From Mesorhizobium sp. B2-8-5 (GTDB lineage Bacteria > Pseudomonadota > Alphaproteobacteria > Rhizobiales > Rhizobiaceae), in NCBI RefSeq assembly GCF_006440675.2, contig NZ_CP083951.1, positions 1,054,001 to 1,118,000 of the forward strand: 64,000 nt of DNA, read 5' to 3'. The position numbers and the translations under genes were made by a program. Of this stretch, positions 11,063-63,113 are shown piece after piece. Position 1 is the first letter of the stretch, and the number at the start of each line of letters is the position of its first letter. The notes below the pieces were generated by a model that worked only from the letters and a program-made list of their open reading frames with translations, was not told the origin of the DNA and did no database searches.

Positions 11063-11166
11063 ACGCCGCAAAGGCTGTCCTCGAAACCATTCCCGAAGAG
11101 CATCGGATTGCGTGTTGGCCGGCCTGCTTCAGCGAGGACCGGCTTGCAAGGCGCATGCGGCTCTAT

Positions 11167-11228: not shown

Positions 11229-11293
11229 AAGTCGGCACCGGATTTTTCCTGGCCGCGAGATTGCAGCGCGGCCTGCACTTTCGGAGATTTGTC

Positions 11294-12091: not shown

Positions 12092-12120
12092 GCGCTGTTG
12101 TCGCGACGGCCGGCAAAGCT

Positions 12121-12312: not shown

Positions 12313-12351
12313 GCTCTTGCGAAGGCATCTATTCACCAGCGTTGGGAACTG

Positions 12352-13161: not shown

Positions 13162-13186
13162 CGGGGGGCGCCAAAGTCCGCGCTAC

Positions 13187-13249
13187 CTCTTTGTTTCCGA
13201 CGCAATTCCGGGCGGAAAACCGGTTCCCACTTTTCCTGGAATTGCTCTA
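13187..13249. repeat. palindromic intergenic repeat, family A copy 3
   Basis: Same block order as the copy at 11167: CTCTTTGTTTCCGACGCAAT, GGCGGAAAACCGG, CACTTTTCCTGGAATTGCTC. Confidence 0.8.
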
Positions 13250-13284
13250 CCTTGGTCACATGCATCCGGCGGAGGAGACGTCCC

Positions 13285-14492: not shown

Positions 14493-15902
14493 ATGAGCGC
14501 ACCGCGCACCCTCTACGACAAGATCTTCGACGACCACACGGTCGACCGCCAGGACGACGGCACCTGCCTGCTCTATATCGACCGCCACCTTGTCCACGAA
14601 GTCACCAGCCCGCAGGCCTTCGAAGGCCTGCGCATGAGCGGCCGCAAGGTCCGCCATCCGGAAAAGACGCTGGCCGTGGTCGACCACAACGTGCCGACCT
14701 CGCCCGAGCGCAAGTTCGGCATCAAGAACGAGGAAAGCCGCATCCAGGTCGAGGCGCTGGCCAAGAACGCCAAGGATTTCGGCATCGAATATTATTCCGA
14801 GAACGATATCCGCCAAGGCATCGTCCACATCATCGGACCGGAACAGGGCTTCACGCTGCCCGGCATGACAATCGTCTGCGGCGACAGCCACACCTCCACG
14901 CACGGCGCTTTCGGCGCGCTGGCGCATGGCATCGGCACGTCGGAAGTCGAGCATGTGCTGGCCACCCAGACGCTGATCCAGCGCAAGGCCAAGAATATGC
15001 TGGTGCGCGTCGACGGCCAGTTGCCGGAAGGCGTCACCGCCAAGGACATCATCCTTGCCATCATCGGCGAGATCGGCACCGCCGGCGGCACCGGCTACGT
15101 CATCGAATATGCCGGCGAAGCGATCCGCTCGCTGTCGATGGAAGGCCGCATGACGATCTGCAACATGTCGATCGAGGGCGGCGCGCGGGCAGGCCTGATC
15201 GCGCCGGACGAGACGACCTTTGCCTATGTGAAGGACAAGCCGCGCGCGCCGAAGGGCGCTGCCTGGGATGCCGCGCTCGCCTATTGGAAGACGCTGCAGT
15301 CCGACGAGGGCGCACATTTCGACAAGGTCGTGGTGCTCGACGCGCAGAAACTGCCGCCGATCGTCTCCTGGGGCTCCTCGCCCGAGGACGTCGTCTCGGT
15401 GCAGGGAATCGTGCCCAATCCGCAAGAGATCGCGGACGAGAACAAGCGCACGTCGAAGATCCGCGCGCTCGACTATATGGGGCTGACGCCGGGGACCAAG
15501 ATCACCGACATAGCGCTCGACCGCGTCTTCATCGGCTCCTGCACCAACGGCCGCATCGAAGACCTGCGCGCCGCCGCCAAGGTGGTCGAGGGCAAGACCG
15601 TCAATCCGCGCGTCAATGCCATGATCGTGCCCGGCTCGGGCCTGGTCAAGGAACAAGCGGAGGCCGAGGGCCTCGACAAGATCTTCGTCGCCGCCGGCTT
15701 CGATTGGCGCGAGCCGGGCTGCTCGATGTGCCTGGCCATGAACGACGACCGGCTGAAGCCGCATGAACGCTGCGCCTCGACCTCGAACCGCAATTTCGAG
15801 GGCCGGCAGGGCTTCAAGGGCCGCACCCACCTGGTGTCGCCGGCCATGGCGGCGGCCGCCGCGATCGCCGGCCACTTTGTCGACATCCGCGACTGGAAGT
15901 AA
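14493..15902 (+). CDS. leuC: 3-isopropylmalate dehydratase large subunit
   Basis: 469 residues, normal for LeuC, which with LeuD isomerises 2- to 3-isopropylmalate in leucine synthesis. The 4Fe-4S cluster cysteines are seen in [14 protein letters not shown] and [11 protein letters not shown]. The aconitase-type segments [23 protein letters not shown] and [12 protein letters not shown] are intact. leuD is not adjacent in this window. A terminator follows 20 bases after the stop, so leuC ends its transcript here. Confidence 0.97.
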
Positions 15903-15923
15903 CAGCCGGCTGCGTCTCTCAAC

Positions 15924-15952
15924 AAAGGCCCGGGCAGGACGTCCGGGCCTTT
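15924..15952 (+). terminator. Rho-independent terminator after leuC
   Basis: Stem AAAGGCCCGG / CCGGGCCTTT with a nine-base loop and a T-containing 3' flank. The minus-strand gene ending at 15966 may also use it. Confidence 0.85.
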
Positions 15953-15965
15953 TGCTTTCAGCGCT

Positions 15966-16271
15966 CTATCTGCGAATGATCTCGTGAAACTCCTCGCGCC
16001 GGCCGGGCTCGTCGGCGGCGACGACCAAGGCCAACTGCCGCTCGTCGAAAATCCTGAACCATTCGTCCCACTCCACGAGCTCGTAGCCGCCGCTGTTGAT
16101 CGAACGCTCCGGGCGGTCGGTGTCTTCATAGGCCTGCTGCCCAAAAACCAGTCGCAGCATGGGCTGCGTTCCCGCCTCGGGCGAGACGTCGACGATGGCC
16201 GGGAAGCCGGCGCGCGCCGCCGCCCAGGAGCGGATTTCATCGTGGTTCGTCAAAGTGATCGTGCCGGCCAT
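15966..16271 (-). CDS. conserved small protein of unknown function
   Basis: 101 residues (MAGTITLTNHDEIRSWAAARAG onward). I chose 16271 because GGGAGA lies eight bases upstream; a frame extending to 16313 lacks this. The sequence is acidic, has no signal or membrane segment, and contains SINSGGYELVEWDEWFRIFDERQLALVVA, a compact alpha/beta pattern. The good ribosome-binding site and protein-like composition support a real gene. No function assigned. Confidence 0.75.
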   Translation of the reverse strand: MAGTITLTNHDEIRSWAAARAGFPAIVDVSPEAGTQPMLRLVFGQQAYEDTDRPERSINSGGYELVEWDEWFRIFDERQLALVVAADEPGRREEFHEIIRR

Positions 16272-16431
16272 CTCGATCGTCTCCCGTCTGGCGTCTCCTG
16301 TCTGGCCGGACAACGCCGCTCCGGCAGGCCGGTTCCGTGTGGCATGCGATGTGCTCGTCGGGGCTTAACCGCTTGTTTGGGCTTAGGTCCTAGTATCTCC
16401 CCCTGGGTAAGTTGGGGAAAGTCGCAGTCCT

Positions 16432-17628
16432 TTGGACACCGGTCTGCTCATAGCGCTGCTCAATCCGTCGATAGCGCTAGCGCTTGGCGCCGCGTTCCTC
16501 GTGCTGTTTTCCTATCAGCGTCATCGCCCGTATCTGGCTGCGCTCGGCGCGAGCTACTGCCTGTCGGCGCCGGGTTTCCTGCTGCAGTATTTCACGCTTC
16601 CGATCGGCGTGGCGCTGACCAAGCTGGCTTCCAACATCTGTTTCACGATCGCGGCCTGCTGCCTCTCCAGCGCGATCGTCGCGCGCTATGGGCGGCGCGT
16701 GCCCTATGTAGGCATCGGTATCGTGACCGGAGGCGGGCTCGCCGCTTTCATCTGGTTCATGTTCGTCGAGCCGGACCTCACCTGGCGCGTGCTCGTCATG
16801 AATTTCGGCTTTGGCGCGCTCAGCCTGCTGGTCGCCGCGGAACTGAGAACGGTGCGCAACAACGGTCCGACCGAGAAAATCCTGTTCGCGCTGTCGCTGC
16901 TTTCCGGGCTGAACTTCATCGCCCGCACGCTGATCGTCGTCATCGCGCATGGACCGTTCCTTGGCTATGACGGCTTCTACGGCTCGTCCTACTGGACGAC
17001 GGCGCTGCTTTCGCACGCGCTGTTGTCGCTGCTGATCGCGCTTAGCCTGTTCACGGCCGCGGCGCTCGACGTGATGAGGGCACTGAAGGCCGAGACCCAC
17101 ACGGATCCGCTCTCGGGCATCCTCAACCGCCGCGGCTTCGAGGAGCGGGCAACCGTGTTGCTCGACCAGTGCGGCAAGGCGGGGTTTCCCGTCGCCCTGG
17201 TGCTTGCCGATCTCGATCACTTCAAGGCGCTGAACGACCAACATGGGCATGAGGCCGGCGACCGGGTTATCGCCGATTTCGCCGCCAAGTTGCGTTCCGC
17301 CACCGGCGCACGCGGGGCCGCCGGCCGCATCGGCGGCGAAGAGTTCGCCGTGCTTTTGCCGCTCAGCGACCTGGGGGCGGCAAGGCTCTTCGCCGAAGCG
17401 ATCCGCGCTTTCTATTCGGCCGGCGCGATCGACGGGCTGCCGCCCGATACCAGGGTCACGGCCAGCTTCGGCGTTGCCGCGCGAAGCGGCAGGGAAGGCC
17501 TGGCGCCGCTGATGCGGCGCGCCGACGAGGCGCTCTACAAGGCCAAAAAGAACGGCCGCGACAGCGTGCGGCTTTCCTATGAGAGACCTGAAACCGCCTT
17601 CGCTGCCGAGCCGCTCGCCGTCGGCTGA
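16432..17628 (+). CDS. membrane-bound GGDEF diguanylate cyclase
   Basis: 398 residues. The N-terminal half has about six or seven hydrophobic segments (residues 1-215) forming a membrane sensor I cannot name. The C-terminal half is a GGDEF domain: DPLSGILNRRGFE, ADLDHFKALNDQHGHEAGD, and the active-site RIGGEEFAVLLP, so c-di-GMP synthesis is expected. The allosteric RxxD site that should lie upstream of GGEEF is absent (small residues stand there), suggesting no product feedback at that site. Start is TTG at 16432 with a weak ribosome-binding site, so the N-terminus is uncertain. Confidence 0.88.
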   Translation: MDTGLLIALLNPSIALALGAAFLVLFSYQRHRPYLAALGASYCLSAPGFLLQYFTLPIGVALTKLASNICFTIAACCLSSAIVARYGRRVPYVGIGIVTGGGLAAFIWFMFVEPDLTWRVLVMNFGFGALSLLVAAELRTVRNNGPTEKILFALSLLSGLNFIARTLIVVIAHGPFLGYDGFYGSSYWTTALLSHALLSLLIALSLFTAAALDVMRALKAETHTDPLSGILNRRGFEERATVLLDQCGKAGFPVALVLADLDHFKALNDQHGHEAGDRVIADFAAKLRSATGARGAAGRIGGEEFAVLLPLSDLGAARLFAEAIRAFYSAGAIDGLPPDTRVTASFGVAARSGREGLAPLMRRADEALYKAKKNGRDSVRLSYERPETAFAAEPLAVG

Positions 17629-17727
17629 TACATACAGGCCCGGCGGCGGCGGCATTCATGGCGGTTGTCGTCTATGACACCGGACGCGTGTCAGGCGCGC
17701 TGTGACGGCGCCAAACGCCGACGATCT

Positions 17728-18084
17728 TCAACGGCAAGGGCTGAGATTGGGCATCTCGCCGTCGGAAAGCCCGTACATATAGGAGCGGCCCTTCACCAGC
17801 ACCGGCGGCTGGTAGCAGCCGGGCGCGCCGGGTTCGTCCGCATCGTCATAGACGACATCCGGCTGGCCGGCGCTGGTGAATTCGGAAAGCTTTTTCGCAA
17901 GCTTGCCCTCGCCGACGACGATGCGCTTGTAGCCGGCGGCGCTGTCGATGACGAGATTGCCGAAGGAATCGGCATAGACACGGTCGTGATGGCGCAAGCC
18001 GGCTTCGGCCGGCGCGGCGATTGCCATGACAAACCCTGCCAGCGCCGCGGCCGCGAGGCTTGCCCGCACTGAATTCGAACGCAT
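17728..18084 (-). CDS. small secreted protein, likely CtrA-controlled
   Basis: 118 residues. A signal peptide (MRSNSVRASLAAAALAGFVMA...PAEA before GLRHHDRV) is followed by a short periplasmic domain. That domain contains two cysteines (GCYQPPVL and the final LSPCR), which could pair. I do not recognise the family. About 60 bases upstream of the start is a perfect TTAA-N7-TTAA box, see the separate entry. Role unknown; cell-envelope location is inferred. Confidence 0.75.
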   Translation of the reverse strand: MRSNSVRASLAAAALAGFVMAIAAPAEAGLRHHDRVYADSFGNLVIDSAAGYKRIVVGEGKLAKKLSEFTSAGQPDVVYDDADEPGAPGCYQPPVLVKGRSYMYGLSDGEMPNLSPCR

Positions 18085-18142
18085 GTCGCTCTCCCTTGAT
18101 CGGCGCGACAGATCGCGCCTGGAATCCGGTTCGAATCGGAAA

Positions 18143-18157
18143 TTAACTCTTTCTTAA
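18143..18157 (-). promoter_or_regulatory. putative CtrA binding site
   Basis: TTAA-CTCTTTC-TTAA matches the CtrA consensus TTAA-N7-TTAA exactly, with a flanking C. It lies 59 bases upstream of the start of the minus-strand secreted-protein gene at 18084. Binding is inferred from consensus alone. Confidence 0.6.
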
Positions 18158-18333
18158 CCTTTGTTAAGAGGCGGGAGGCCTTCGGCGCCGGTTCTTAGGG
18201 AACATGGTTAATTTCGAGGGCCGGCTTGCCAGGCAACAGGGCGGTCGCAGTGCCGATCTGACTTCAGGTCACCTTGATCTTGCAACGTCGCGTGGCTACA
18301 GCGGTCCACCGTTTCACAGTAACGGCAAGCGGC

Positions 18334-18420
18334 TATCTCTTTGTTTCGACGCAATTCCGGACGGAAGGCCACGGCGAACACGCCGAACCCAACCGTTCAC
18401 ACTTTTCCCGGAATTGCTGT
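18334..18420. repeat. palindromic intergenic repeat, family A copy 4 (expanded)
   Basis: Has the usual CTCTTTGTTTCGACGCAATT start and CACTTTTCCCGGAATTGCTG end. The centre is about 25 bases longer than in other copies (GGCCACGGCGAACACGCCGA inserted), and the insert is itself partly palindromic. Confidence 0.75.
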
Positions 18421-18447
18421 AGGGTGCCGCGCACGAAAGGGCAGCGT

Positions 18448-18948
18448 ATGAGCTTTGGCCACACGGTTCGGGTCTCGATCATCATCCCGCTGCTTCTCGC
18501 GGCCGCGGCCTGCGTACCGCAGGATGGCGCGCCCAAGTCGGCCGATGCCGCACCGCTGCCGGCTTCGCCTGCGCCGAACCAGCAGCCCGCCGCGCCAGCG
18601 GCGACGTCGATACCTGCGACGCCCCCAGTACCTGCGGCAGTGTCGGTCCCGACAGCGGCCAAGAGGCCCGCACCGCCAACCAAGATCATCACCGATCTTA
18701 CGACGCCGCGATCCGGCATCGGCACGGCCACGTACAGATGCGGCAATGGCGGCTTGATCACCATGCAGAATCTCGGCTCGTCGCTGCGCGTGGTCCGGCC
18801 GGATGGGACGACTGAGGATTTCGCCGCCTCGCCCGCCAACCAGAGCAGCCGCTACCAGGAAGCGGCGACGCATGACGCAATCGTGATCGACGGACGCGAG
18901 GCGCTGGTGATGAAGAGGGGATCCACCCCGCAGACTTGCAGAAGATAG
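18448..18948 (+). CDS. lipoprotein with MliC-like C-terminal domain
   Basis: 166 residues. A lipoprotein signal ends in LLAAAAC (lipobox), so the mature protein is lipid-anchored. A Pro/Ala/Ser-rich linker of about 60 residues follows. The C-terminal 75 residues (ATYRCGNGG.ITMQNLGSSLRV through the final TPQTCRR) have the spacing of the MliC/PliC lysozyme-inhibitor domain, with a Cys near each end. A role in protecting peptidoglycan from lysozyme is therefore possible. Start 18448 is the one that yields the lipoprotein signal. Confidence 0.75.
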   Translation: MSFGHTVRVSIIIPLLLAAAACVPQDGAPKSADAAPLPASPAPNQQPAAPAATSIPATPPVPAAVSVPTAAKRPAPPTKIITDLTTPRSGIGTATYRCGNGGLITMQNLGSSLRVVRPDGTTEDFAASPANQSSRYQEAATHDAIVIDGREALVMKRGSTPQTCRR

Positions 18949-19174
18949 CGCAGTTTGTTGCACTGCAGCGAACGCTGCGCCGACTTCTAAACAGCCGCTA
19001 ATCGATTGAAGCGCGCGGCCTCCAATTTGTCAGACTAAATGATGTTTCCAAAACGTTTTTCCGGCTTTGACGCGGTGCAAAAAGAGCATTAGAAACCGGC
19101 TGTCCGAAGCCATATATGAGGGCGGCAAACGCCGCATTCCCATCGCGGCTCCAGGATGCCGATCTGGGGGAGCC

Positions 19175-19597
19175 ATGAGCAAATCACCAGCCACCCGCGC
19201 AGTTGCCAGACGTGAACGGCCGCTCTCGCCGCATCTGACGGTCTACCGGCCGCCGATCACGATGACGATGTCGATCATCCATCGCATCACCGGCGGCGCG
19301 CTCTATTTCGGGACGCTGCTGGTGGCGGCGTGGCTGATCGCAGCTTCGAGCTCGCAGGCCGCCTTCGACTGGGTCAACTGGGCCTTCGGCTCCTGGCTCG
19401 GCCGGCTGGTTCTGTTCGGCTACACCTGGGCGCTGATGCACCACATGCTGGGCGGGCTGCGCCACCTTGTCTGGGACACCGGCGCGGGACTGGAAAAACA
19501 CACCGCGTCGAGGATCGCCTGGGCGACGCTCGCCGGTTCGATCGTGCTCACGCTGCTGATCTGGATCGCCGGCTATATGGCGCGGGGAGCTTTCTGA
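19175..19597 (+). CDS. sdhC: succinate dehydrogenase cytochrome b556 subunit
   Basis: 140 residues with three transmembrane helices, a membrane anchor of complex II. Signature segments are [25 protein letters not shown] (quinone-site Ser/Arg region) and [13 protein letters not shown], which includes the heme-ligand histidine. The start at 19175 has a GGGGGAG ribosome-binding site; the frame is open further upstream but without support. It overlaps sdhD by one base. Confidence 0.95.
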
Positions 19598-19992
19598 TGG
19601 CCGCCAACAATTCGGACATGCGCACGCCGCTGGCGAGAGTCCGCGGCCTCGGTTCGGCCCGCGAAGGCACCGGGCATTTCTGGCGGCAGCGGCTGACCGC
19701 CATCGCCAACATTCCTTTGATCCTGTTCTTCGTCGGCTTCCTGATCGCGATCAACGGCCATGACTACGCGGATGTGCGGGCGGCGCTTGCGAACCCGTTC
19801 GTGGTGGTCATGCTCGGGCTGGTGCTGATCTCGCCGCTTTACCACATGCGCATCGGCATGCAGGTGATCATCGAGGATTACGTGCATGGCGAAGGCCTGA
19901 GGTTGGCGCTGATCGCGCTCAACACCTTCTTCTGCGTGGCAGTCGGCGTCGCTTCGCTGTTTGCCCTGCTCAAACTCGCATTCGGAGGCTGA
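19597..19992 (+). CDS. sdhD: succinate dehydrogenase membrane anchor subunit
   Basis: 131 residues, three transmembrane helices. [22 protein letters not shown] supplies the second heme-ligand histidine and the quinone-site Asp-Tyr. The N-terminal [21 protein letters not shown] is typical of alphaproteobacterial SdhD. The ATG overlaps the sdhC stop (TGATG), and sdhA begins four bases after its stop. Confidence 0.95.
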
Positions 19993-51943: not shown

Positions 51944-52942
51944 CTATCTGCTCGTTGCCTGCGAATCCCGAGCGGAAGGCAGGCTGGCCTCGAGGAAGCG
52001 GTGCCAGGCGCCGCCGAGAACCAGCGCGGTTTCGGCCTCACCGAATCCGGCCGGGAGAAGACCTTCCGACAGCTTCGCAAAATCGAGGTTCGATCTGAAC
52101 CAGGATGGCTGACCCGGAAAGCTCGCGGTCGCCTGGATCTCGCGGGTCCAGCGGCCTTCGCGCATCCAGCGCACGACGCTGTCGGGCTGGTCCTGGCAGA
52201 GATCCGAGCCGATGCCGAGATGATCCGCCCCCATGATCCCGGCCGCTTCGGCAGCCATCTTTCCGAACTGCTCCAGCGTGGTGTCCGAGCCGTTCGGGAG
52301 GTGCAGCGGATAGAGCGAAAGGCCGAGCAGCCCCTCCTTTGCGCGCAATGCCTGCAATAGGGCCCTGGAGACATTACGGTTGCTGTCGCGCAGCCAGCGC
52401 GGATTGGCGTGGCTGATGACCACCGGCCGCTCCGAGAGCGCGATCGTTTCCAGCGCGGTTCGCTCGCCCGCATGCGACAGATCGATAATCATGCCGAGCC
52501 GGTTCATCTCGGCGATGGCCTCGCGCCCCATCCGCGTCACACCGCTGTCCTCCTTCTCCATCCAGCCGCAGCCGAGCAGCGACTGGTTGTTGTAGGTGAG
52601 CTGCATGAAGCGGATGCCGAGATCGAAAAGCATCTCGATCAAGCCGATGTCGTCCTCGATCGGCATCGGGTTCTGCAGGCCAAGCAGGATCGCCGTCCGG
52701 TTCGTGGCCCGCGCCCGCTCGATGTCGCCGGCATCGCGCGCCAGAAGGATCAGGTCCTCATTGTCGCGAAGCCAAGTGCGCCAATCGACGAGGTGGCGCA
52801 CCGTCTCGCGAAAACCTTCGTGATAGCCGACCGTGGCGTGAACCGCGGTCAGCCCTCCCCGGCGCATCTCCTCGAAAATTTCGCGCGACCAGTTGCAGTA
52901 TTGCAGCCCGTCGATCAGCACTCCCGGCGCGTCGCTGGTCAT
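51944..52942 (-). CDS. M19 dipeptidase-like protein with altered metal site
   Basis: 332 residues with the M19 (renal dipeptidase) amidohydrolase fold: LGIRFMQLTYNNQS, IDLSHAGERTALETI, PVVISHANPRWLRDSNRN (two metal His retained) and MGADHLGIGSDL (Asp). The N-terminal HxD zinc pair, normally in DGHND, reads DGLQYCN here, so two ligands are missing. It may use one metal or have changed activity. ATGA overlap with the aldehyde dehydrogenase upstream means they are co-translated. Part of the divergent LysR/SABATH locus. Confidence 0.85.
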   Translation of the reverse strand: MTSDAPGVLIDGLQYCNWSREIFEEMRRGGLTAVHATVGYHEGFRETVRHLVDWRTWLRDNEDLILLARDAGDIERARATNRTAILLGLQNPMPIEDDIGLIEMLFDLGIRFMQLTYNNQSLLGCGWMEKEDSGVTRMGREAIAEMNRLGMIIDLSHAGERTALETIALSERPVVISHANPRWLRDSNRNVSRALLQALRAKEGLLGLSLYPLHLPNGSDTTLEQFGKMAAEAAGIMGADHLGIGSDLCQDQPDSVVRWMREGRWTREIQATASFPGQPSWFRSNLDFAKLSEGLLPAGFGEAETALVLGGAWHRFLEASLPSARDSQATSR

Positions 52943-54387
52943 TCGGCCACGCCCGCGTGGATGTAGGACGTCTTGACCTGCGTGTAGAACTCGACCGCGG
53001 CGCGGCCCTGCTCGCGCGGGCCGTAGCTGGAGGCGCGAACGCCGCCGAACGGCACGTGATAGTCGGTGCCGGCGGTGGCCAGGTTGACCATGACGCAGCC
53101 CGAGCGCGAGGCGTGGCGAAATTTCGTCGCGCGCGCCAGCGAGCGCGTGGCGATGCCGGCCGTCAGCCCGTAAGGCGTGTCGTTGGCCAGCAGGATCGCC
53201 TCGTCGAGATCGTCGGCGGCAATGACGCAGGTTATCGGCGCGAACATCTCCTCCTGGTTGATGCGCATGCGCGAGCGACCGTTGAGGAACACGGCCGGCG
53301 CCATGTAGTGGCCCCGATGCGCCAGGTCGAGCGCTTCGCCGCCGGTCACAAGCTCCGCTCCTTCGTTTATGCCGAGGGTCACATAGTCAAGATTGGCCGA
53401 GAGCTGCTCGGCGCTGACGACCGGCCCCATCTGGACGCCGGCCGCAAGCGCATGGCCGACCTTCAGAGCTTTGGTTTTCACCAGCAGCTTGTCGACGAAG
53501 GCGTCGTGGATCGGCCGATGGACGATCAGGCGGGATGCCGCCGTGCATTTCTGCCCGGTGCCGCCGAAGGCGCCGTTCACGGCAAGGTCGACGGCGCGGT
53601 CGAGGTCGGCATCGTCCATGATCACGAACGGATTCTTCGACCCCATTTCGAGCTGCAGCTTCACGAAGCGTGCGGCGGCCAGCGCCGCGATACCGGAACC
53701 GACGGCACCGGAGCCGGTGAAGCTCAACCCTTGTATGTCGGCTTTGGCGGCAAGTTCGCGGCCGATCGTCGATCCTGATCCCATGACCAGGCTGAACAGG
53801 CCTTTCGGGATCGCCTGCCGGCTGATGATCTCGGTCAGCGCCCAGGCGCTGGCCGGAGTGATGCTGGCCGGCTTCCAGACCACGGCATTGCCGAAGGCGA
53901 GCGCCGGCGCGATCTTCCAGGACGCGGTGGCGATGGGGAAATTCCACGGCGAAATGATCGCGACGACGCCGAGCGGTTCGCGCTCGATCAGAACGTCCAC
54001 GCCAGCCCTGACGGAATCGGCCGAGGAGCCGAGATTGCGCAAGGCTTCAGCCGCGAAATAGGTGAAGAACTGGCCGGCGCGATAGACCTCGCCGACGCCC
54101 TCGGGAAGGGTCTTGCCCTCCTCGCGCGAAAGCAGTTCGCCGAGCTCCTTCGAGCGCGCCATCAATTCGCGACCGATGGCGTCGAGAACGGCGGCTCTCG
54201 CTTCGAGCCCGGCCGCGGCCCATTCCCGTTGCGCGCTTTGCGCCGCCGCCACGGCGTCATGGACGTCGGACGGCCGCGCCTGGGCGAAGCGCCCGACGAT
54301 GTCGGTCACGTCGGAGGGATTGACGTCCTCGACCCAGTCGGCGCCGTCGCGCCATTCGCCTGCAACGAAGTTCTGACCGTTCAGCAT
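52939..54387 (-). CDS. NAD(P)-dependent aldehyde dehydrogenase
   Basis: 482 residues, standard ALDH. Segments: ISPWNFPIATASWKIAPALAFGN (coenzyme), FTGSGAVGSGI, catalytic Glu in LQLEMGSKNPF, catalytic Cys in GGTGQKCTAASR, and EEMFAPI. The GGTGQKCTAASR form is shared with alpha-ketoglutaric-semialdehyde and related dehydrogenases, which suggests an acidic or dicarboxylic semialdehyde substrate; this is only a hint. Transcribed away from the LysR gene, upstream of the M19-like gene. Confidence 0.93.
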   Translation of the reverse strand: MLNGQNFVAGEWRDGADWVEDVNPSDVTDIVGRFAQARPSDVHDAVAAAQSAQREWAAAGLEARAAVLDAIGRELMARSKELGELLSREEGKTLPEGVGEVYRAGQFFTYFAAEALRNLGSSADSVRAGVDVLIEREPLGVVAIISPWNFPIATASWKIAPALAFGNAVVWKPASITPASAWALTEIISRQAIPKGLFSLVMGSGSTIGRELAAKADIQGLSFTGSGAVGSGIAALAAARFVKLQLEMGSKNPFVIMDDADLDRAVDLAVNGAFGGTGQKCTAASRLIVHRPIHDAFVDKLLVKTKALKVGHALAAGVQMGPVVSAEQLSANLDYVTLGINEGAELVTGGEALDLAHRGHYMAPAVFLNGRSRMRINQEEMFAPITCVIAADDLDEAILLANDTPYGLTAGIATRSLARATKFRHASRSGCVMVNLATAGTDYHVPFGGVRASSYGPREQGRAAVEFYTQVKTSYIHAGVAE

Positions 54388-54487
54388 CTCGTTCGACCTA
54401 CATCAATTCGGTTGACAACGACCTAACCAATGCTGTGAACTTCAATCAAGCTCAATTTTTGGCACAAATGTTCAGGCAAGCTTAACA

Positions 54488-55396
54488 GTGACCAAAACCA
54501 TCAGCCTGACCGGCATGCGCAGCTTCGTCGCGGTCTGCGAGACCGGCGGCGTGCGCGCCGCCGCCGACCAGATCGGCCGTACCCCGTCAGCCGTGTCGAT
54601 GACCTTGAAGCAACTGGAAGACGATATCGGCGCGCCATTGTTCGAGAGCGAGCGCAAGGGCGCGCTTTCGCCGGTCGGCCGCATCGTGCTCGACGAGGCG
54701 CGCGCCATGATCGCGCATTACGACCGCGCCTGTCTGGCGATGACCAGCTATGCGGCGGACCGGCAGGGCCGCTGCGACGTTGCCAGCGTGCCTTCGGTCG
54801 CCGTGACCTTGCTGCCGCGCGCGATCGCCCAGCTTCGCGCCGAGGGCAGCCGGTTCGACATCCACGTCCGCGACAGCGATTCCAGCGCCATCGTCGACGC
54901 CGTCGAAAACGGCATGGTTGAAGTGGGCCTGTGCGTGCTCGCCACCAGGCGGCCGCAGCTCAGTTTCGAGCCGCTGTTCCACGAGCCGCTCGATTTCGTC
55001 TGCCCTGCCGATCATCCGCTGGCAAAATCCAAGCGCCCGCTGAAATGGACGCAGCTCGAGGGCGAGAGCTTCATCCGCAATGGCGCGGCCACGGCGCTGG
55101 GGCTTGCCGAGACCGAGGCGCTCGCCGCCGGCTCGAAACTCACCGCGACCAATGTGAGCTCCAACCTGGCGATGGTGGAGGCAGGGCTCGGCGTCACCAT
55201 CCTGCCCCGGCTCTGCCGCTGGAAAAGCGGCCATGACGTGCGCTTCGTTCCCCTTGCCGACCCGCGCTCGAGCCGGACCGTCGGCTGGATCGCCAAGGAA
55301 GGCCGCAACCTGCAGCCGGCGTCGCTGCGGTTCATCGAATGCATTCGCCTACAGACGCAGGCGAGCGAAGGAGAGTTCGGCTATGCGGCGGCATGA
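54488..55396 (+). CDS. LysR-family regulator of the SABATH locus
   Basis: 302 residues. Helix-turn-helix: MRSFVAVCETGGVRAAADQIGRTPSAVSMTLKQLE, giving the recognition helix SAVSMTLKQLE. The effector domain has SNLAMVEAGLGVTILPRL. Starts with GTG at 54488, 100 bases from the divergent ALDH start; that gap (with AAT-rich tracts and TTGACAACG near 54412) should hold both promoters. Its stop is 15 bases before the Ldh2-type gene, so it is likely autoregulated as first gene of the rightward operon. Confidence 0.92.
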   Translation: MTKTISLTGMRSFVAVCETGGVRAAADQIGRTPSAVSMTLKQLEDDIGAPLFESERKGALSPVGRIVLDEARAMIAHYDRACLAMTSYAADRQGRCDVASVPSVAVTLLPRAIAQLRAEGSRFDIHVRDSDSSAIVDAVENGMVEVGLCVLATRRPQLSFEPLFHEPLDFVCPADHPLAKSKRPLKWTQLEGESFIRNGAATALGLAETEALAAGSKLTATNVSSNLAMVEAGLGVTILPRLCRWKSGHDVRFVPLADPRSSRTVGWIAKEGRNLQPASLRFIECIRLQTQASEGEFGYAAA

Positions 55397-55411
55397 TTGG
55401 CGGATGACCGG

Positions 55412-56416
55412 ATGACGCGCCTGACGCAAGCCCGCATCGAGACGCTCGCCCGCACCGCGCTGCTGCGCCATGGCGCCAGCGAGGCGCAGGCCCGTGCGCT
55501 CGCCGCAGCCATCGCGGCAGCCGAACGCGACGGCCTGAAGTCGCATGGCCTGATGTACCTGCCGACCTATTGCGAGCATTTGATCTGCGGCAAGGTCCTG
55601 GGGCAGGCCGAGCCGCGCCTGACGCGTCCGGCTCCGTCGGTCGTCGCCGTCGATGCCGGCAACGGCTTTGCGCACGCGGCCATCGCCATCGGCCTGCCGC
55701 CGCTGATCGAGGCGGCGCGCTCGCAAGGCGTGGCGGCTTTGGCTATCCGCAATTCCTACAATTGCGGCGCGCTCGGCTATCACACCGAAAACATCGCCCG
55801 GGACGGCATGGTCGGTCTGGGCTTCACCAACGCGCCGGCCTCGATCGCGCCCTGGGGCGGCCGCAAGGCGGCGCTGGGCACCAACCCCTGGTCGCTGGCG
55901 GTCCCCGACGGGCACGGCGGCGCGCGCTTCGTCATCGACCAGAGCGCCAGCGTCGTCGCCAAGAGCGAGGTCATCAAGCGCGCCCGCGCCGGCGAGCCGA
56001 TCCCGCCCGGCTGGGCTTTCGACGCAAGCGGCGAGACGACCACCGACGCCGGCGAAGCGTTGAAGGGTACGATGGCGCCGGCGGGCGCCTACAAGGGCGT
56101 CGGCTCCGCCTTGCTGGTGGAGATATTTGCCGCGTGCCTGACGGGAGCCAATCCCGGGCTTGTCGCCAGCCCCTTCTCCGGCACGGCCGGAGGTCCGCCG
56201 GGAACCGGCCAGTTCTTCCTGGCGGTCTCGCCCGGAGCGACATCGGCCGGGGCATTCGCGGGGAATCTGGAAACCGTCGCCGGCGCCTTCACCGGCGATA
56301 CCAGGCTTCCGGGCACAAGGCGCTTCGGCGCGCGCGAACAGAACACCAAAGAGAGCATCGAGGTAGCGGCGGAAACGCTTGCCACCTTGGAAAAGCTCGC
56401 AGGGACCGCCGCATGA
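55412..56416 (+). CDS. Ldh2/malate-L-lactate dehydrogenase family oxidoreductase
   Basis: 334 residues. The Ldh2 fold is recognised by an N-terminal helical part (ERDGLKSHGLMYLPTY, with the SHG histidine), VDAGNGFAHAAIAIGLPPLI, RNSYNCGALGYHTENIARDGMVGLGFTNAPASIAPWGG and ALGTNPWSLAVP. Members reduce 2-oxoacids or cyclic imino acids (Delta1-pyrroline-2-carboxylate/piperideine-2-carboxylate) with NAD(P)H. Which of these applies is unknown. Start ATG 55412; stop overlaps the next gene's ATG. Confidence 0.9.
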   Translation: MTRLTQARIETLARTALLRHGASEAQARALAAAIAAAERDGLKSHGLMYLPTYCEHLICGKVLGQAEPRLTRPAPSVVAVDAGNGFAHAAIAIGLPPLIEAARSQGVAALAIRNSYNCGALGYHTENIARDGMVGLGFTNAPASIAPWGGRKAALGTNPWSLAVPDGHGGARFVIDQSASVVAKSEVIKRARAGEPIPPGWAFDASGETTTDAGEALKGTMAPAGAYKGVGSALLVEIFAACLTGANPGLVASPFSGTAGGPPGTGQFFLAVSPGATSAGAFAGNLETVAGAFTGDTRLPGTRRFGAREQNTKESIEVAAETLATLEKLAGTAA

Positions 56417-58068
56417 CGGCGATCGCGCTGCGCCCGCCGGAGGTCGTCATGCGCTTGCATCGGCTGGGCGCCGCGCATCCGACGCGGCTCAGTTTCCTGC
56501 GCCAGCTGATCCGCCGCGCCAGCAGGGAGAAATGGCGAGTGCGCAAACACCTGTTCGATCTCGACGACCAGGGATTCGGGCGCGCGGTCTATGCGGTCGA
56601 GACACCGGCAAGGACCTACAGCCTGGTCGCGTTCTCGACCCCGCTCGACGACGAGAAGCGGTCCGACCGGGTGATCGCGCAGGCCTGGGACACGAGCTAC
56701 GTGCTTTACGACGGATTGCCGGACGCCGCCGAAATCGCGCGGCTGGAGGCAAATGCGCCGCTGCAGGAGGCAGGCCGCTACACCAGAAGCGAACTGGTGC
56801 TGGCGCGCGCCAACAAAAGCGTGCGGCTGTTCGATGAAGTCGCCGTGGCACTGGCACAGGGACGACAGCCGGACGAGGAGCAGTTGCTCGGCGTCGGCTA
56901 TTTGCTGCGCACCACGGCGGTTTACGGCAATGGCAAGTTCGGCATCGCCGATCGCGACGAGATCGCAACACCGCCGGAGCTTGCGGGATCCTTCCAGGCG
57001 GAAATGCTCACGGTCTGGCTGATCCGATCCTTCACGCTCGATCTTGTCGACCACATCGCCTATCTCCGCAATCCGGCCGGCGCGGCAAGGCTGGCGCCGG
57101 ATTTGCGCCGAGCGCTCGGCGTGGGCAATGCAACGGGGCTCGGCATGGCGCCGTTTCTCGTGCGCCATCCGTTGTTGACGCATAGCTGGTTCCTGGCCCG
57201 CGAAACCGCGCTGGCGAGGGTGCGCGCCGAACCGCAAGCCGGCGCGCCGGAACGAGACGTTTTCTTGAAAGCGCTCGCCGACCTGCGGCAGCGCGTGGCT
57301 CGCTGGCATAGCAACGATGACCGCCAGGCCGCCGCGACCTTGTCGCTGGCCGCCGATCTCGACGCGCTGGCCGAAAACCTCGACCGGCTTCTGGCGCAGC
57401 CCTGCCCCTGGGATGCGATCTATCGCTTCGCGGAAGAAAAATTCTCGCTCGAGGGACAGGAGGCCTGCTTATCGCTGATCCTCGAGCCGCACGGTGCCCT
57501 GATTGACGATCTCGGCGACACGATGAAGGCCGACGAGACGCTCGGCCATGCCATTGACGGCACCATGAGCTGCGCCTCGCTTCGTCAGGCACTTCTCGCC
57601 TCCTATTCCTGGGCGGCCAAGGTCGACTTCGCTGAGCCGTCCGCCAACGCGCGTTTCTGGTATGTCTCGGCGGAGAAGCTCGAGCCCCGGCTCGGCGAAC
57701 GCTTCGAGGAGGACGGCGCCGAGCTCGAACAGCCTTTGGCCACCGCGCGCGACGCGCTCAGCCTGGCGGCCGCGCTGGCGCAGGAGCCACCCACGGCCAG
57801 TGTCGCGGACTTCCTGCTGCGCCTGCCCGAATGGCGCCACGCGGTGCGGCGCGCCCAGATCGTCGCCAGGTTTCCCTATGCCGAGATCCACGACAATCTG
57901 ATCGGCGCCGACTTGCGGCCCGTCGACATCTTGCGCGCGAAGCTCGCTTTCTTCGGCGCGCGCAGCTTCGATCCGCGCTCCGACCGCTGGCTGCGGATCG
58001 CGCTGTTCAGCGGCGAGCCCCTGATCGAGGATGTCGCCGCCATGGCTCCGGCAGGAGAGGCGGCGTGA
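56413..58068 (+). CDS. unrecognised 551-residue protein of the SABATH locus
   Basis: No family I can name. Cytoplasmic by composition, mostly helical, with conserved-looking segments RLSFLRQLIRRASREKWRVRKHLFDLDDQGFGRAVY, LLRTTAVYGNGKFGIADRD, DLVDHIAYLRNPAGAARLAPDLRRALGVGNATGLGMAPFLVRHPLLTHSW (split by dots in nature), and ANARFWYVSAEK. The ATG overlaps the Ldh2 stop and the stop overlaps the DUF3726 GTG, so it is translated in fixed ratio with both. It has a normal base composition for the region and no frameshift. It is a good candidate for a new enzyme or scaffold. Confidence 0.85.
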   Translation: MTAIALRPPEVVMRLHRLGAAHPTRLSFLRQLIRRASREKWRVRKHLFDLDDQGFGRAVYAVETPARTYSLVAFSTPLDDEKRSDRVIAQAWDTSYVLYDGLPDAAEIARLEANAPLQEAGRYTRSELVLARANKSVRLFDEVAVALAQGRQPDEEQLLGVGYLLRTTAVYGNGKFGIADRDEIATPPELAGSFQAEMLTVWLIRSFTLDLVDHIAYLRNPAGAARLAPDLRRALGVGNATGLGMAPFLVRHPLLTHSWFLARETALARVRAEPQAGAPERDVFLKALADLRQRVARWHSNDDRQAAATLSLAADLDALAENLDRLLAQPCPWDAIYRFAEEKFSLEGQEACLSLILEPHGALIDDLGDTMKADETLGHAIDGTMSCASLRQALLASYSWAAKVDFAEPSANARFWYVSAEKLEPRLGERFEEDGAELEQPLATARDALSLAAALAQEPPTASVADFLLRLPEWRHAVRRAQIVARFPYAEIHDNLIGADLRPVDILRAKLAFFGARSFDPRSDRWLRIALFSGEPLIEDVAAMAPAGEAA

Positions 58069-58643
58069 TCGACCTGTCGCTCAACGAGGTGGAAACGCTG
58101 AGCACCAAGGCGGCGCGGGGCGCCGGATTTTCATGGGGACTGGCCGAGGATATCGGCCGCGCGGCACGCCGGATCGCGGTCGAGGACGACAACTGGGGCT
58201 TGGCCATGCTGAGCCTTGCCAAAAACGCGCAGTCCTTCGCGGCGCCCGACCCTGCCCGCGCGGCGCGCTGGCGAAAAGGCGAGACGGACAAGCCGGCCGA
58301 AACGCCACTTTGCCCGATCCGAACCGCGGCTTTGCTGCTCGACGATCCGCTTCCAGCGAGCGCGCTGCCGCTGGCGATCATCGATGTCGGCCTGCCTGTC
58401 TGGCTCGACGCCATGCTGCGCCGCTCGGCCATGCGCATGGCGCGGCCCGTGGGGCCGGTGACACGCGCCGATGTCGTCATCGAACGCCGCCCCGAAATCG
58501 AGCAGCCGGCCTCGGGCCGGCGCGGCGCGATCGACGAGCGGACGCTTGCGGCGCTCAATTCCTTCGCCGCGAGAACCTATGTGCCGGAAAGCGAAGGGTC
58601 GCGTGTGCGTGGTGCCGGCGGCGGCCGGGTGGACGACGAATAA
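58065..58643 (+). CDS. DUF3726 family protein
   Basis: 192 residues. The opening LSLNEVETLSTKAARGAGFSWG..EDIGRAARRIA is the DUF3726 signature; the rest includes CPIRTAALLLDDPLP and LDAMLRRSAMRMARP. Function of the family is unknown. GTG start overlapping the stop of the 551-residue protein (GTGA) suggests the two form a complex. Ends 12 bases before the methyltransferase start. Confidence 0.8.
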   Translation: MIDLSLNEVETLSTKAARGAGFSWGLAEDIGRAARRIAVEDDNWGLAMLSLAKNAQSFAAPDPARAARWRKGETDKPAETPLCPIRTAALLLDDPLPASALPLAIIDVGLPVWLDAMLRRSAMRMARPVGPVTRADVVIERRPEIEQPASGRRGAIDERTLAALNSFAARTYVPESEGSRVRGAGGGRVDDE

Positions 58644-58655
58644 GGGGAGAAAAAA

Positions 58656-59762
58656 ATGAGCGCAGCCGACGGCCAGAAGATCGCCATGCGCGGAGCGGGT
58701 TATTACTCGGCCAACACCGTGGGCGCCAAATACGTCATCGACAAGGTCGGCGATCTCGTCGTCGAGGCCGTCGCCGGCATGCCCCGGCTGGCCGACGGCC
58801 AGCCATTCGCCATCGCCGATTTCGGCGCGGCCGATGGCGGCACATCGATGGACATGATGCGGCGGCTGGTCGGCGCCGTTCGGGAGAGGGAACCGGACCG
58901 GGCGATATCGATCACCTACACCGACCTGCCCCACAATGATTTCTCGACGCTGTTCCGGCTCAGCCAGGGACTGCTTGGCACCTCGACGGAGGTTCCGCTG
59001 GCCGAGACGCCCGGGCTCTACATCTTCGGCAGCGGCACCAGCTTCTATCGGCAGATCGTGCCGGACAATTCGCTCTCGTTCGGCTTTTCCGCCACGGCGA
59101 TGCACTGGATCAGCAAGCGGCCCTGCATGATCGCCGACCATGTCCAGGCTGTCGGCGCGACCGATGCCGAGCGCGCGCAGTTTCGCGCCCAGGGACTGCG
59201 CGACTGGGAGACGATCCTGCTGGCCAGGGCGCGCGAGCTCAGGTCGGGCGGCAGGCTGGCGCTGGCCAATTTCTGCGTCGACGAGGAAGGGCGCTATCTC
59301 GGACACACGACCAGGGTCGATATGTTCGACGGCTTCGCGCGCCATTGGCGCGACCTGGCTCAGGCGGGGCGGATCAGCGAGACGGAATATGTCAACGCGA
59401 CGTTCCAGCAATTCTACAAGACGCCGGGCGAGTTCGCGGCACCCTTCCGCGATCCCGCTTCGCCGGTGTCGCAGGCCGGACTGAGGCTGGAAAACATCTT
59501 CACCATGGTGACGCCGTGCCCCTATGCCGAAGCCTTCCGGGTCCATGGCAATGCGCAGACCTTCGCCAGGGCCTATGTGCCGACGCTCCGCTCCTGGTCG
59601 GAAACCGTCTTTGCCAACGCGCTCGACCCGTCGCGTCCCGCGGCCGATCGTTCCGCAATCGTCGACGCTCTTTACGGCGCGTACGAAGCCGATGTCGCGC
59701 GCGCCCCCGAAGGCCATCGGATGGACTACGTCCACTGCGTGACGGAGATCGTCAAAGGATAA
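58656..59762 (+). CDS. SABATH-family carboxyl methyltransferase
   Basis: 368 residues. Shows the order of SABATH enzymes (salicylate, jasmonate, indole-acetate methyltransferases): N-terminal YYSANTVGAKYVID, SAM motif DFGAADGGTS (55-64), DLPHNDFSTLF (90-100), FYRQIVPDNSLSFGFSA (130-146) and MHWISKRP with W151, the aromatic contact to the substrate carboxylate in plant homologues. The Gln of the plant N-terminal NSxxQ site is replaced (N20, A24), so the substrate pocket differs. Expected reaction: SAM-dependent methyl esterification of a small acid. GGGGAGAAAAAA precedes the ATG. Last gene of the operon. Confidence 0.85.
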   Translation: MSAADGQKIAMRGAGYYSANTVGAKYVIDKVGDLVVEAVAGMPRLADGQPFAIADFGAADGGTSMDMMRRLVGAVREREPDRAISITYTDLPHNDFSTLFRLSQGLLGTSTEVPLAETPGLYIFGSGTSFYRQIVPDNSLSFGFSATAMHWISKRPCMIADHVQAVGATDAERAQFRAQGLRDWETILLARARELRSGGRLALANFCVDEEGRYLGHTTRVDMFDGFARHWRDLAQAGRISETEYVNATFQQFYKTPGEFAAPFRDPASPVSQAGLRLENIFTMVTPCPYAEAFRVHGNAQTFARAYVPTLRSWSETVFANALDPSRPAADRSAIVDALYGAYEADVARAPEGHRMDYVHCVTEIVKG

Positions 59763-61982: not shown

Positions 61983-63113
61983 TTACCGCCTTAAAGCAGC
62001 CGAGATGGCCGCCAACCCGCCGCGCAACTCCGCTTCCTTCGGCCAGCCGAAGCCGAGGCGGAAGAAGCGTTTCGGCATCTCGAACCAGTGGCCGGGACCG
62101 ACATAGGTGCCATGCTCCTCCAGCAGCCTTGTGTAGAACTTGTCGAGGTCGAAGCCGGCATCGACGTTGAGCCGCGGGAAGCCGACGACACCACCTTGCG
62201 GCCGCACCCAGTCGACGAGAGGTTCGCCTTCGATCCAGGCCTGGACGATGTCGCGGCGCCTGGTCATTTCGGGGAGAAGCGAGGCGAGAAAGGCGTCACG
62301 GCGTTCGAGCGTGATGCGGGCGATCGCCTCGTCGATGACGCTGCCGCAGATGCCGATCTGCTCCTTGGCGGCGAGGAAGGTTTCCTGCAGCTCCGGATCG
62401 CGGGTGACCAGCCAGCCGATGCGGATGCCCGGAATGCCGAACGCCTTGGACAGCGAGCAGACGCTGATCGCGCTTGGGCTGAGCGAGGCCGCCGCCGGCA
62501 GGCGTTCGCCGTAGGAGAGGTCGCGATAGGTCTCGTCGACCAGCAGCCGGCACTTGTGATGTTCGGCGAGCGTAATCAACGCGTCGAGATCGGCGCGTGT
62601 CATCATCGTGCCGGTCGGGTTGTGCGGGCAGGTGACGCTGATCAGTTTCGTGTTCGGCCGCAGCTCTGCCTTCACAAGGTCGATGTCGACGGCAAAGCCC
62701 TGGTCGAAATCGAGATCGACATAGGAGATGGCGCAGCCGATCGCCTTCGGCGTCTCGATGTTGGTGGCGTAGTTCGGCCGCACGACCACGAGATGGTCGC
62801 TGGCCGAAAGCAGCGCGGTGGCGATGATGAACAGCGCGCCGGCCGCGCCCGCGGTCACAAGCACATCGTCGGGAGAAACGCCGTTGTCCTGCCCGGCGAT
62901 CAGCGCGCGCAAGTCCTTGTCGCCGCGATGCTCGCCATAGAACAAGGTGAGGTCGGGCAGCGCGAGGCCGATGTCGGACAGTTTCTGGTCGGCGATCGAG
63001 CTTTCGGAAAGGTTGTAACGGATGCGGCCGTAGCCGTATTCCTCCGGCGCTTCCTTCTCGATCACCATCCTGGCGTAGTTCATGGCTATGTTCCCCAGCG
63101 GTTGATCGTTCAT
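61983..63113 (-). CDS. class I/II pyridoxal-phosphate aminotransferase
   Basis: 376 residues. Aminotransferase fold with TAGAAGALFIIATALL (phosphate-binding turn), TCPHNPTGTMMTRADL (Asn), DETYRDLSY (Asp/Tyr) and the PLP lysine in SLSKAFGIPGIRIGW. The Arg for carboxylate binding appears near the C-terminus (RFFRLGFG). Resembles aspartate-type aminotransferases; amino-acid specificity is unknown. Confidence 0.92.
   Translation of the reverse strand: MNDQPLGNIAMNYARMVIEKEAPEEYGYGRIRYNLSESSIADQKLSDIGLALPDLTLFYGEHRGDKDLRALIAGQDNGVSPDDVLVTAGAAGALFIIATALLSASDHLVVVRPNYATNIETPKAIGCAISYVDLDFDQGFAVDIDLVKAELRPNTKLISVTCPHNPTGTMMTRADLDALITLAEHHKCRLLVDETYRDLSYGERLPAAASLSPSAISVCSLSKAFGIPGIRIGWLVTRDPELQETFLAAKEQIGICGSVIDEAIARITLERRDAFLASLLPEMTRRRDIVQAWIEGEPLVDWVRPQGGVVGFPRLNVDAGFDLDKFYTRLLEEHGTYVGPGHWFEMPKRFFRLGFGWPKEAELRGGLAAISAALRR

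What the first reader, a model, noticed from the sequence alone, without database searches (positions are those of the whole stretch)
51944..59762. Divergent LysR-centred locus with a SABATH methyltransferase, DUF3726, Ldh2, ALDH and M19-like protein
Seven genes in two divergent, translationally coupled units share one 100-base promoter region. Overlapping stops and starts (ATGA, ATGA, GTGA) link ALDH to the M19-like protein and Ldh2 to the 551-residue protein and DUF3726. No known pathway I can name combines these. Ldh2 reductases and semialdehyde-type ALDHs occur together in imino-acid and hydroxyproline breakdown, and an M19-type hydrolase plus a carboxyl methyltransferase would act on amides and acids. 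A pathway that handles an N-acyl or cyclic amino acid through a methyl ester is therefore conceivable. This combination is the best candidate in the window for an undescribed system.
Basis: partly seen in the sequence, partly recalled or inferred. Interest (0 to 1): 0.85.

Follow-up and report, generated by a model that had tools for sequence, protein, structure and literature searches.

The report
Betaine-breakdown operon carrying a methyltransferase
A soil bacterium carries a widely shared gene set that probably breaks down a methylated pyridine acid (most likely homarine, a common marine metabolite), with an added methyltransferase gene that may let it make that compound from the unmethylated acid before eating it.

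Summary
The seven genes are real and laid out as described. They are not unique to this strain. A core of an M19-like hydrolase, a 551-residue protein (P551) and DUF3726, often with ALDH, Ldh2 and LysR, recurs in Alphaproteobacteria (including Pelagibacteraceae) and some Gammaproteobacteria, often beside betaine-type importers. I read it as a catabolic operon for a methylated N-heterocyclic betaine, most likely homarine (N-methylpicolinate). A 2026 paper on homarine catabolism exists, but I saw only its citation, so identity with the published operon is inferred.

New here: the SABATH methyltransferase is an add-on tied to P551, which is in 41 of 42 genomes with a close SABATH homologue against 10 of 61 SABATH-negative controls. 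A DctP-type carboxylate receptor or TRAP gene lies within 1.5 kb of SABATH in 9 of 44 loci, against 0 of 89 P551 loci without SABATH nearby. Nearly all close SABATH sequences have lost the Gln of carboxyl-methylating relatives. I propose that it N-methylates picolinate to feed the pathway.

P551 has a confident AlphaFold model, no Pfam family and no PDB fold match; it is fused to DUF3726 in one plasmid, so the pair is probably one enzyme, perhaps the ring opener. No activity has been tested.

The parts
51944..52942 (-). M19-like amidohydrolase (332 aa); proposed de-formylation of an N-formyl-N-methyl intermediate
   Evidence: PF01244 1.2e-66; closest solved 2i5g 'amidohydrolase'; in 89 aligned rows the bridging Glu is Gln (89 of 89), no row has His or Asp at the HxD positions (one row gapped), and His157, His178, Asp247 are kept (89 of 89)
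52939..54387 (-). Aldehyde dehydrogenase (482 aa); proposed oxidation of the ring-opened semialdehyde
   Evidence: PF00171 6e-151; best NCBIfam model alpha-ketoglutaric semialdehyde dehydrogenase, 488 bits, below its cut-off of 770; 4-base overlap with the M19-like gene
54469..54487 (.). Candidate LysR operator TGTTCAG-N5-CTTAACA (imperfect inverted repeat)
   Evidence: Read. GTTCAG and AACAG are kept in all 13 aligned intergenic regions; the T before GTTCAG is C in L033, L038 and L040. The Methylocapsa row (L047) is a perfect 7+5+7 palindrome
54488..55396 (+). LysR-type regulator, divergent from ALDH/M19
   Evidence: PF03466 2.9e-37, PF00126 5e-17
55412..56416 (+). Ldh2-family reductase (334 aa); proposed reduction of the N-methyl imine/enamine to the N-methylamino acid
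   Evidence: PF02615 5.7e-87; best solved relative 1wtj, delta1-piperideine-2-carboxylate reductase, 9e-47
56413..58068 (+). P551: family without a Pfam model or PDB fold match; proposed first (ring-opening) enzyme with DUF3726
   Evidence: No Pfam family matched more than 3 of 80 members at E<=0.1; no convincing PDB sequence relative (best E 0.27); AlphaFold pLDDT 91.3, pTM 0.92; 0 of 128 Foldseek matches at E<=0.001; fused to DUF3726 in Mesorhizobium sp. 131-2-1
58065..58643 (+). DUF3726 protein (192 aa), probable partner subunit of P551
   Evidence: PF12525 2.6e-11; model pLDDT 90.2; top seven Foldseek hits are Ldh2-family proteins but not significant (best E 0.5); hhalign to the Ldh2 N-terminus E 3e-4 for one comparison, probability 39%
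58656..59762 (+). SABATH-family methyltransferase (368 aa); proposed N-methylation of a pyridine carboxylate such as picolinate
   Evidence: PF03492 5e-29; closest solved 5f2k fatty acid O-methyltransferase 1e-48, then plant SABATH enzymes; co-occurrence with P551 and adjacency to DctP/TRAP genes

Best explanation
The locus is a catabolic operon for a methylated N-heterocyclic betaine, most likely homarine (N-methylpicolinate), extended by an activating methyltransferase. SHOWN: the core M19-like + P551 + DUF3726, often with Ldh2, ALDH and LysR, is a conserved but patchily distributed unit; it often lies beside betaine importers; a close SABATH homologue was almost never found in a genome without P551; it repeatedly lies beside a DctP-type carboxylate receptor gene. 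INFERRED: SABATH N-methylates an imported or internally made pyridine carboxylate (picolinate) with S-adenosylmethionine, giving homarine. P551 with DUF3726 opens the pyridinium ring between C5 and C6. ALDH oxidises the resulting semialdehyde. The M19-like enzyme removes the N-formyl group. Ldh2 reduces the N-methyl imine to N-methylglutamate. A sarcosine-oxidase or N-methylglutamate-dehydrogenase type enzyme then releases glutamate and the methyl carbon. LysR senses the substrate or an intermediate and acts on the shared intergenic region.
For: Recurrence: P551 in 29 of 398 phylum genomes and 20 of 99 Mesorhizobium genomes (one of the 20 is a 29% paralogue, two are fragmentary). Of 112 P551 stretches M19 is near in 107, LysR 68, ALDH 67, Ldh2 60 (LysR and ALDH counts can include unrelated family members). 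Betaine importers (BCCT or ProX/ProW) in 43 of 112. Named examples: Ruegeria sp. TM1040 (LysR, ALDH, M19, BCCT, P551, DUF3726, Ldh2, beside sarcosine oxidase subunits); Phaeobacter inhibens DSM 17395 beside DMSP-demethylation genes. Sarcosine-oxidase-type subunits next to the cluster in L047 and L242 and within 5 kb in L243 (families checked for L047 only). SABATH dependence: 41 of 42 against 10 of 61, Fisher 5e-18; within family f17 13 of 13 against 7 of 20, p 2e-4. DctP or DctM match within 1.5 kb on the same strand: 9 of 44 SABATH loci against 0 of 89 P551 loci without SABATH in the stretch, p 3e-5; receptor plus DctM permease in three lineages (G016, f103, G611), receptor alone in f105. 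Two of these receptors are closest to 2hzk (deposited as SmoM; recalled as a 2-oxo-acid binder), with 7ug8 'Ketoacid-binding protein' also high. Ala replaces the SABATH Gln in 61 of 62 close sequences. A paper states that Mgd takes part in homarine catabolism and cites Ferrer-Gonzalez 2026.
Against: No substrate is shown. The homarine paper was not held, so its gene list could not be compared; the six-gene match to a 'homABCDER' operon is recalled, and that name was found in 0 papers. In f105 no DctM was matched and the next transporter gene downstream in L240 is an ABC-type permease. SABATH and betaine importers are not strictly exclusive: L258 has both, G016 has ProXW beside P551 and SABATH elsewhere. 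With tree-aware pairs the exclusion is not significant (3 supported pairs, median p 1). I recognised no oxygenase cofactor motif among P551's invariant residues.
Confidence: 0.45

Rival explanations
1. The core breaks down a different methylated betaine or cyclic imino acid (for example another N-methylpyridinium acid or an N-methylated proline-type osmolyte), and SABATH methylates the matching precursor.
For: Importer types are mixed: BCCT, ProXWV, PotABCD-like and branched-chain ABC importers. Diverged P551 paralogues occur with a dipeptidase but with an aminotransferase and SSADH instead (S. meliloti pSymB, 31% identity). Ldh2 is closest to a piperideine-2-carboxylate reductase.
Against: The main family keeps one core with 41 invariant P551 positions in 80 sequences. 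The homarine link comes from an independent paper, but only by citation.
Confidence: 0.27
2. SABATH is biosynthetic: it makes homarine as an osmolyte, and the operon recycles it.
For: Lone SABATH genes in many genomes that also carry P551, many of them in family f17 (unnamed, probably Rhodobacteraceae).
Against: In Mesorhizobium, Methylocapsa and others SABATH is co-directional in the catabolic operon. DctP receptors beside it suggest uptake of an acid. Co-transcription with the degrading enzymes would be futile.
Confidence: 0.12
3. SABATH makes a methyl ester of an acid intermediate or toxic acid; its link with P551 is through shared substrates.
For: Most characterised SABATH enzymes methylate carboxyl groups (established knowledge); the closest solved relative is a fatty acid O-methyltransferase.
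Against: The Gln of the carboxyl-methylating members is Ala in 61 of 62 close sequences (Pro in the other), while 3 of 4 distant bacterial relatives keep Gln. 89 mapped P551 loci have no SABATH in the stretch, although at least two of those genomes carry it elsewhere.
Confidence: 0.12

Closest known systems
Homarine catabolic pathway of environmental bacteria (Ferrer-Gonzalez et al. 2026, Nat Microbiol 11:1531; seen only as a citation)
   Same: Inferred: a core with one regulator, betaine importers nearby, N-methyl amino acid oxidation genes nearby in some, found in marine Alphaproteobacteria
   Different: Gene list not compared. Here the locus is in a rhizobial genus and carries a SABATH methyltransferase.
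Trigonelline degradation (TgnA/B ring-opening oxygenase; PMC8269262 passages; later steps recalled)
   Same: An N-methylpyridinium acid opened to an N-methylformamido semialdehyde, then ALDH and a hydrolase (recalled) would be the same logic
   Different: None of the seven genes was named as an oxygenase by Pfam or NCBIfam; P551 has no modelled family
SABATH methyltransferases (PF03492)
   Same: Pfam match 102 bits against cut-off 29.8; plant SAMT, LAMT and xanthine N-methyltransferases are relatives
   Different: Ala in place of the carboxylate-binding Gln in 61 of 62 close sequences; genomic link to P551 and DctP/TRAP genes
Renal/M19 dipeptidases (PF01244)
   Same: Pfam match 225 bits; two His and the Asp kept
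   Different: HxD motif and bridging Glu replaced; best solved match is 2i5g 'amidohydrolase', well ahead of the dipeptidases

Membership tests
Homarine catabolic operon | Same genes as the published operon | not testable with these tools
   Paper not held; name homABCDER in 0 papers of the library
Homarine catabolic operon | Betaine-type uptake genes linked to the core | tested here: inconclusive
   43 of 112 core stretches have BCCT or ProX/ProW, but not the window or Mesorhizobium loci L032-L046
Homarine catabolic operon | Growth on homarine lost in a core mutant | not testable with these tools
   Needs a bench test
SABATH methyltransferase | Methyltransf_7 domain above cut-off | tested here: met
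   102 bits, cut-off 29.8
SABATH carboxyl (O-) methyltransferase | Gln at the SAMT Gln25 position (role recalled) | tested here: not met
   Ala24 in the window protein and in 61 of 62 close sequences; position read by eye from the 1m6e alignment
M19 dipeptidase | HxD metal motif and bridging Glu (recalled) | tested here: not met
   No His or Asp at the HxD positions in any of 89 rows (one gapped); Gln for Glu in 89 of 89
Ldh2-family reductase | Ldh_2 domain above cut-off | tested here: met
   292 bits, cut-off 38.8
Ldh2 imino-acid reductase | Imine-reducing activity | not testable with these tools
   Only a resemblance: best solved relative 1wtj, 9e-47
Any modelled family for P551 | Pfam, NCBIfam or PDB match | tested here: not met

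The most novel reading that the evidence does not exclude
A SABATH-family enzyme activates a pyridine carboxylate (picolinate) by N-methylation to homarine so that it can be degraded by a ring-opening enzyme of a new fold (P551-DUF3726): a methylation-first route for pyridine breakdown that turns a marine osmolyte pathway into a soil pathway for an unmethylated acid.
Probability: 0.33. Interest if true: 0.82.

Novelty: new variant of a known kind. Interest (0 to 1): 0.62.

Why it matters
If right, it gives a sequence marker (P551-DUF3726) for breakdown of an abundant marine metabolite, assigns a likely role to a family with no Pfam model and no known fold, and predicts an unusual catabolic logic in which a compound is methylated first so that a betaine pathway can use it. 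It also suggests N-methylation as a role for a bacterial SABATH subfamily. Each point is testable with one enzyme or one knockout.

Tried and rejected
Methyl-ester pathway: not favoured (Gln lost; no SABATH in the stretch of 89 P551 loci).

SABATH and betaine importers as strict alternatives: the raw count is striking (0 of 23 against 43 of 89, p 4e-6), but it rests largely on Mesorhizobium copies (0 of 7 against 43 of 88 without them, p 0.015), fails with tree-aware pairs, and L258 has both. The TRAP-against-SABATH pairs on the tree were too few as well. I keep the SABATH-P551 co-occurrence and the direct SABATH-DctP adjacency. Those Fisher tests treat genomes or loci as independent, which they are not fully.

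Checking showed that in f105 only the DctP-type receptor gene is there and the next transporter gene in L240 is an ABC-type permease; I corrected this and lowered the novel-case odds slightly (0.35 to 0.33).

P551 fold: Foldseek on PDB gave nothing significant. DUF3726 as a truncated Ldh2: suggestive only. P551 against Ldh2: no relation. Pfam on 80 P551 members: only stray hits, down to E 0.0016.

Downstream N-methyl amino acid oxidase in the own genome: 22 hits to the L047 SoxA query, 6 of them long (39-62%), one with an in-frame TGA; too many paralogues to single one out. Control genomes for P551 were 20 SABATH-negative f17 genomes and 41 SABATH-negative order genomes with consecutive handles, not matched one to one by family. 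Left out of the 42: G500 and G1109 (SABATH in pieces with stops), 11 genomes with distant SABATH (P551 in 5 of 11) and one weak hit (G012, E 2.6e-4). The 44 SABATH loci include the two broken genes and two copies from G611; five of eight f105 SABATH genomes were not fetched. The printed neighbourhoods were cut.

Papers: DUF3726 in 0 papers; homarine + picolinic acid + methyltransferase in 0 papers; SABATH searches listed nothing relevant among the rows shown. These searches cover only the held open-licence library.
Full report
WHAT IS THERE. The window lies in a 6.46-Mb single-contig genome whose nearest named relatives at this locus are Mesorhizobium. The true start of Ldh2 is probably the ATG at 55412. 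P551 (56413-58068) has no Pfam or NCBIfam match above a cut-off.

IT IS A CONSERVED UNIT. P551 relatives occur in 29 of 398 genomes drawn from the phylum, in 95 confirmed candidates of a pattern-based scan of 84,980 species genomes, of which the best 80 were kept, in 20 of 99 Mesorhizobium genomes (one is a 29% paralogue, two are fragmentary) and in 168 of 72,556 plasmids (many at about 31%). I mapped the window's genes on 112 P551 stretches by tblastn: M19 in 107, LysR 68, ALDH 67, Ldh2 60, DUF3726 57. Some stretches are cut short and DUF3726 diverges (clustering found it in 75 stretches, plus 8 of a longer form); on the other hand LysR and ALDH hits can be unrelated family members. Ruegeria sp. 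TM1040 carries LysR, ALDH, 'membrane dipeptidase', BCCT transporter, P551 ('hypothetical protein'), DUF3726 and Ldh2 in one stretch beside sarcosine oxidase subunits. Phaeobacter inhibens DSM 17395 has LysR, ALDH, dipeptidase, P551 and DUF3726 beside DMSP demethylation genes.

WHAT THE NEIGHBOURS SAY. BCCT or ProX/ProW genes lie in 43 of 112 stretches, PotC plus PotD matches in 7. Sarcosine-oxidase-type subunits are next to the cluster in L047 (TIGR01373 and TIGR01372 above cut-off) and L242, within 5 kb in L243, and in TM1040. RidA-type proteins were matched in 16 of 112 stretches, several of them in loci from another class of the phylum (L133-L141, unnamed), where no Ldh2 was found nearby. 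This points to an imported betaine that yields an imine/enamine and then an N-methylamino acid. [quoted passage not shown] I could not read that paper. From memory its operon has six genes, homABCDE plus a regulator; the count fits Ldh2, ALDH, M19, P551, DUF3726 and LysR, but this is recollection. Homarine is reported as abundant in marine particles (PMC8269262 passages; a later correction, seen only as a listing, says the homarine standard was contaminated with picolinic acid and concentrations were overstated). It was drawn down quickly by R. pomeroyi (PMC12817926 passages), although PMC8269262 reports that R. pomeroyi grew on homarine less effectively than on trigonelline.

PROPOSED CHEMISTRY (inferred). 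Homarine is opened between C5 and C6 to an N-formyl-N-methylamino semialdehyde; ALDH makes the acid; the M19-like enzyme removes formyl; Ldh2 reduces the imine to N-methylglutamate. Supports: Ldh2's best solved relative is delta1-piperideine-2-carboxylate reductase; ALDH resembles 2-oxoglutarate-semialdehyde dehydrogenases (below cut-off); the M19-like family has lost the dipeptidase HxD and bridging Glu (Gln in 89 of 89) but keeps two His and the Asp, so it is not a classical dipeptidase. P551 and DUF3726 are left for ring opening. They overlap by four bases here and are one 814-residue protein on a plasmid of Mesorhizobium sp. 131-2-1, so they probably act together. P551 has 41 invariant positions in 80 sequences, an AlphaFold model at pLDDT 91.3, and 0 of 128 Foldseek matches at E<=0.001. 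DUF3726's top seven structural matches are Ldh2-family proteins, without significance (best E 0.5); a profile comparison aligns its N-terminus with that of Ldh2 (E 3e-4 for one comparison, probability 39%).

THE METHYLTRANSFERASE. Close SABATH homologues (E<1e-75; the next hits are at 1e-34 or weaker in f17 and 5e-38 in the order) were found in 4 of 398 phylum genomes, in 13 of 394 genomes of family f17 and in 28 of 397 genomes of the window's order: 42 different genomes in all. P551 is in 41 of 42; the miss, G870, is 71% complete, and the match in G837 is partial. In SABATH-negative controls it is in 10 of 61. Fisher p 5e-18 overall; 13 of 13 against 7 of 20 within f17, p 2e-4; 27 of 28 against 3 of 41 in the order, p 9e-15. 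Genomes with only distant SABATH have P551 in 5 of 11. In G500 SABATH is broken and P551 shows only a weak 51-residue match. So SABATH goes with P551, while P551 often occurs without SABATH: the mark of an add-on feeding module.

Beside SABATH, on the same strand within 1.5 kb, a DctP or DctM match lies in 9 of 44 loci outside Mesorhizobium (one copy dropped); near P551 without SABATH in the stretch in 0 of 89 (p 3e-5), with four such loci having one within 10 kb. Receptor plus DctM permease is seen in three lineages (G016: SABATH first; f103 and G611: transporter first), and the DctP receptor alone in f105 (L240, L242, L243), where L240 continues with an ABC-type permease. The two receptors that I compared match 2hzk best (deposited as SmoM; recalled as a 2-oxo-acid binder) and also 7ug8 'Ketoacid-binding protein'. 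In 61 of 61 SABATH sequences at 39% identity or more (near-copies and two broken genes included) Ala stands where salicylate methyltransferase has the carboxylate-binding Gln (role recalled; position read); the most diverged sequence still counted as close by E-value (L239, G517) has Pro; of the four distant ones three keep Gln and one is gapped (which row holds which letter is inferred from the tallies and the printed sequences). Some plant SABATH enzymes are N-methyltransferases (2eg5, 2efj, 6lyi listed). Hence the proposal that it N-methylates picolinate.

LIMITS. The window stretch has no DctP/TRAP or betaine importer match. On a 112-row P551 tree SABATH linkage changes at least 6 times (3 forced by supported branches), and the apparent exclusion of betaine importers cannot be tested independently. 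No activity has been measured.

REGULATION. The intergenic region keeps TTGAC, CTAA-CAAT and TTCAATCAAG elements and a GTTCAG...AACAG box (54469-54487 in the window) across 13 loci; it is a perfect palindrome, TGTTCAG-N5-CTGAACA, in Methylocapsa. This would suit a LysR site controlling both arms, but is untested.

VERDICT. A real, conserved catabolic operon, probably the known homarine pathway in a rhizobial genus, with a SABATH add-on whose proposed role (N-methylating picolinate) would be new. The P551-DUF3726 enzyme deserves biochemical work whatever the substrate.

Noticed in passing
L273 (S. meliloti pSymB, CP130050.1) 8944-19632; L274 (Variovorax plasmid) 8941-12437: A diverged P551 (about 31% identity) with a small hypothetical protein and a dipeptidase, in S. 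meliloti followed by an ABC importer, aminotransferase, SSADH and RidA: perhaps a sister system for another substrate.
   Followed up: partly
L275 7947-10391 (Mesorhizobium sp. 131-2-1 plasmid): P551 and DUF3726 are fused into one open frame of 814 residues, in a version of the cluster without SABATH in the stretch shown, within the same genus.
   Followed up: yes
G500:C61:33569-34436 and G500:C47:51925-52074: Broken SABATH gene and only a weak 51-residue P551 match in one genome, as if both were decaying together.
   Followed up: partly
L133-L141: Loci from another class of the phylum often have RidA-type proteins and no Ldh2 nearby, hinting that imine hydrolysis may replace imine reduction there.
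   Followed up: no
window 61983-63113 (-): Aminotransferase whose better NCBIfam models include guanitoxin GntC and capreomycidine synthase, all below cut-off; matched downstream in Mesorhizobium L035 and L037 but not part of the operon.
   Followed up: no
G000:C1:5816359-5819436: Sarcosine-oxidase alpha-like reading frame with one in-frame TGA, the closest own-genome match (62%) to the one beside the Methylocapsa cluster.
   Followed up: no
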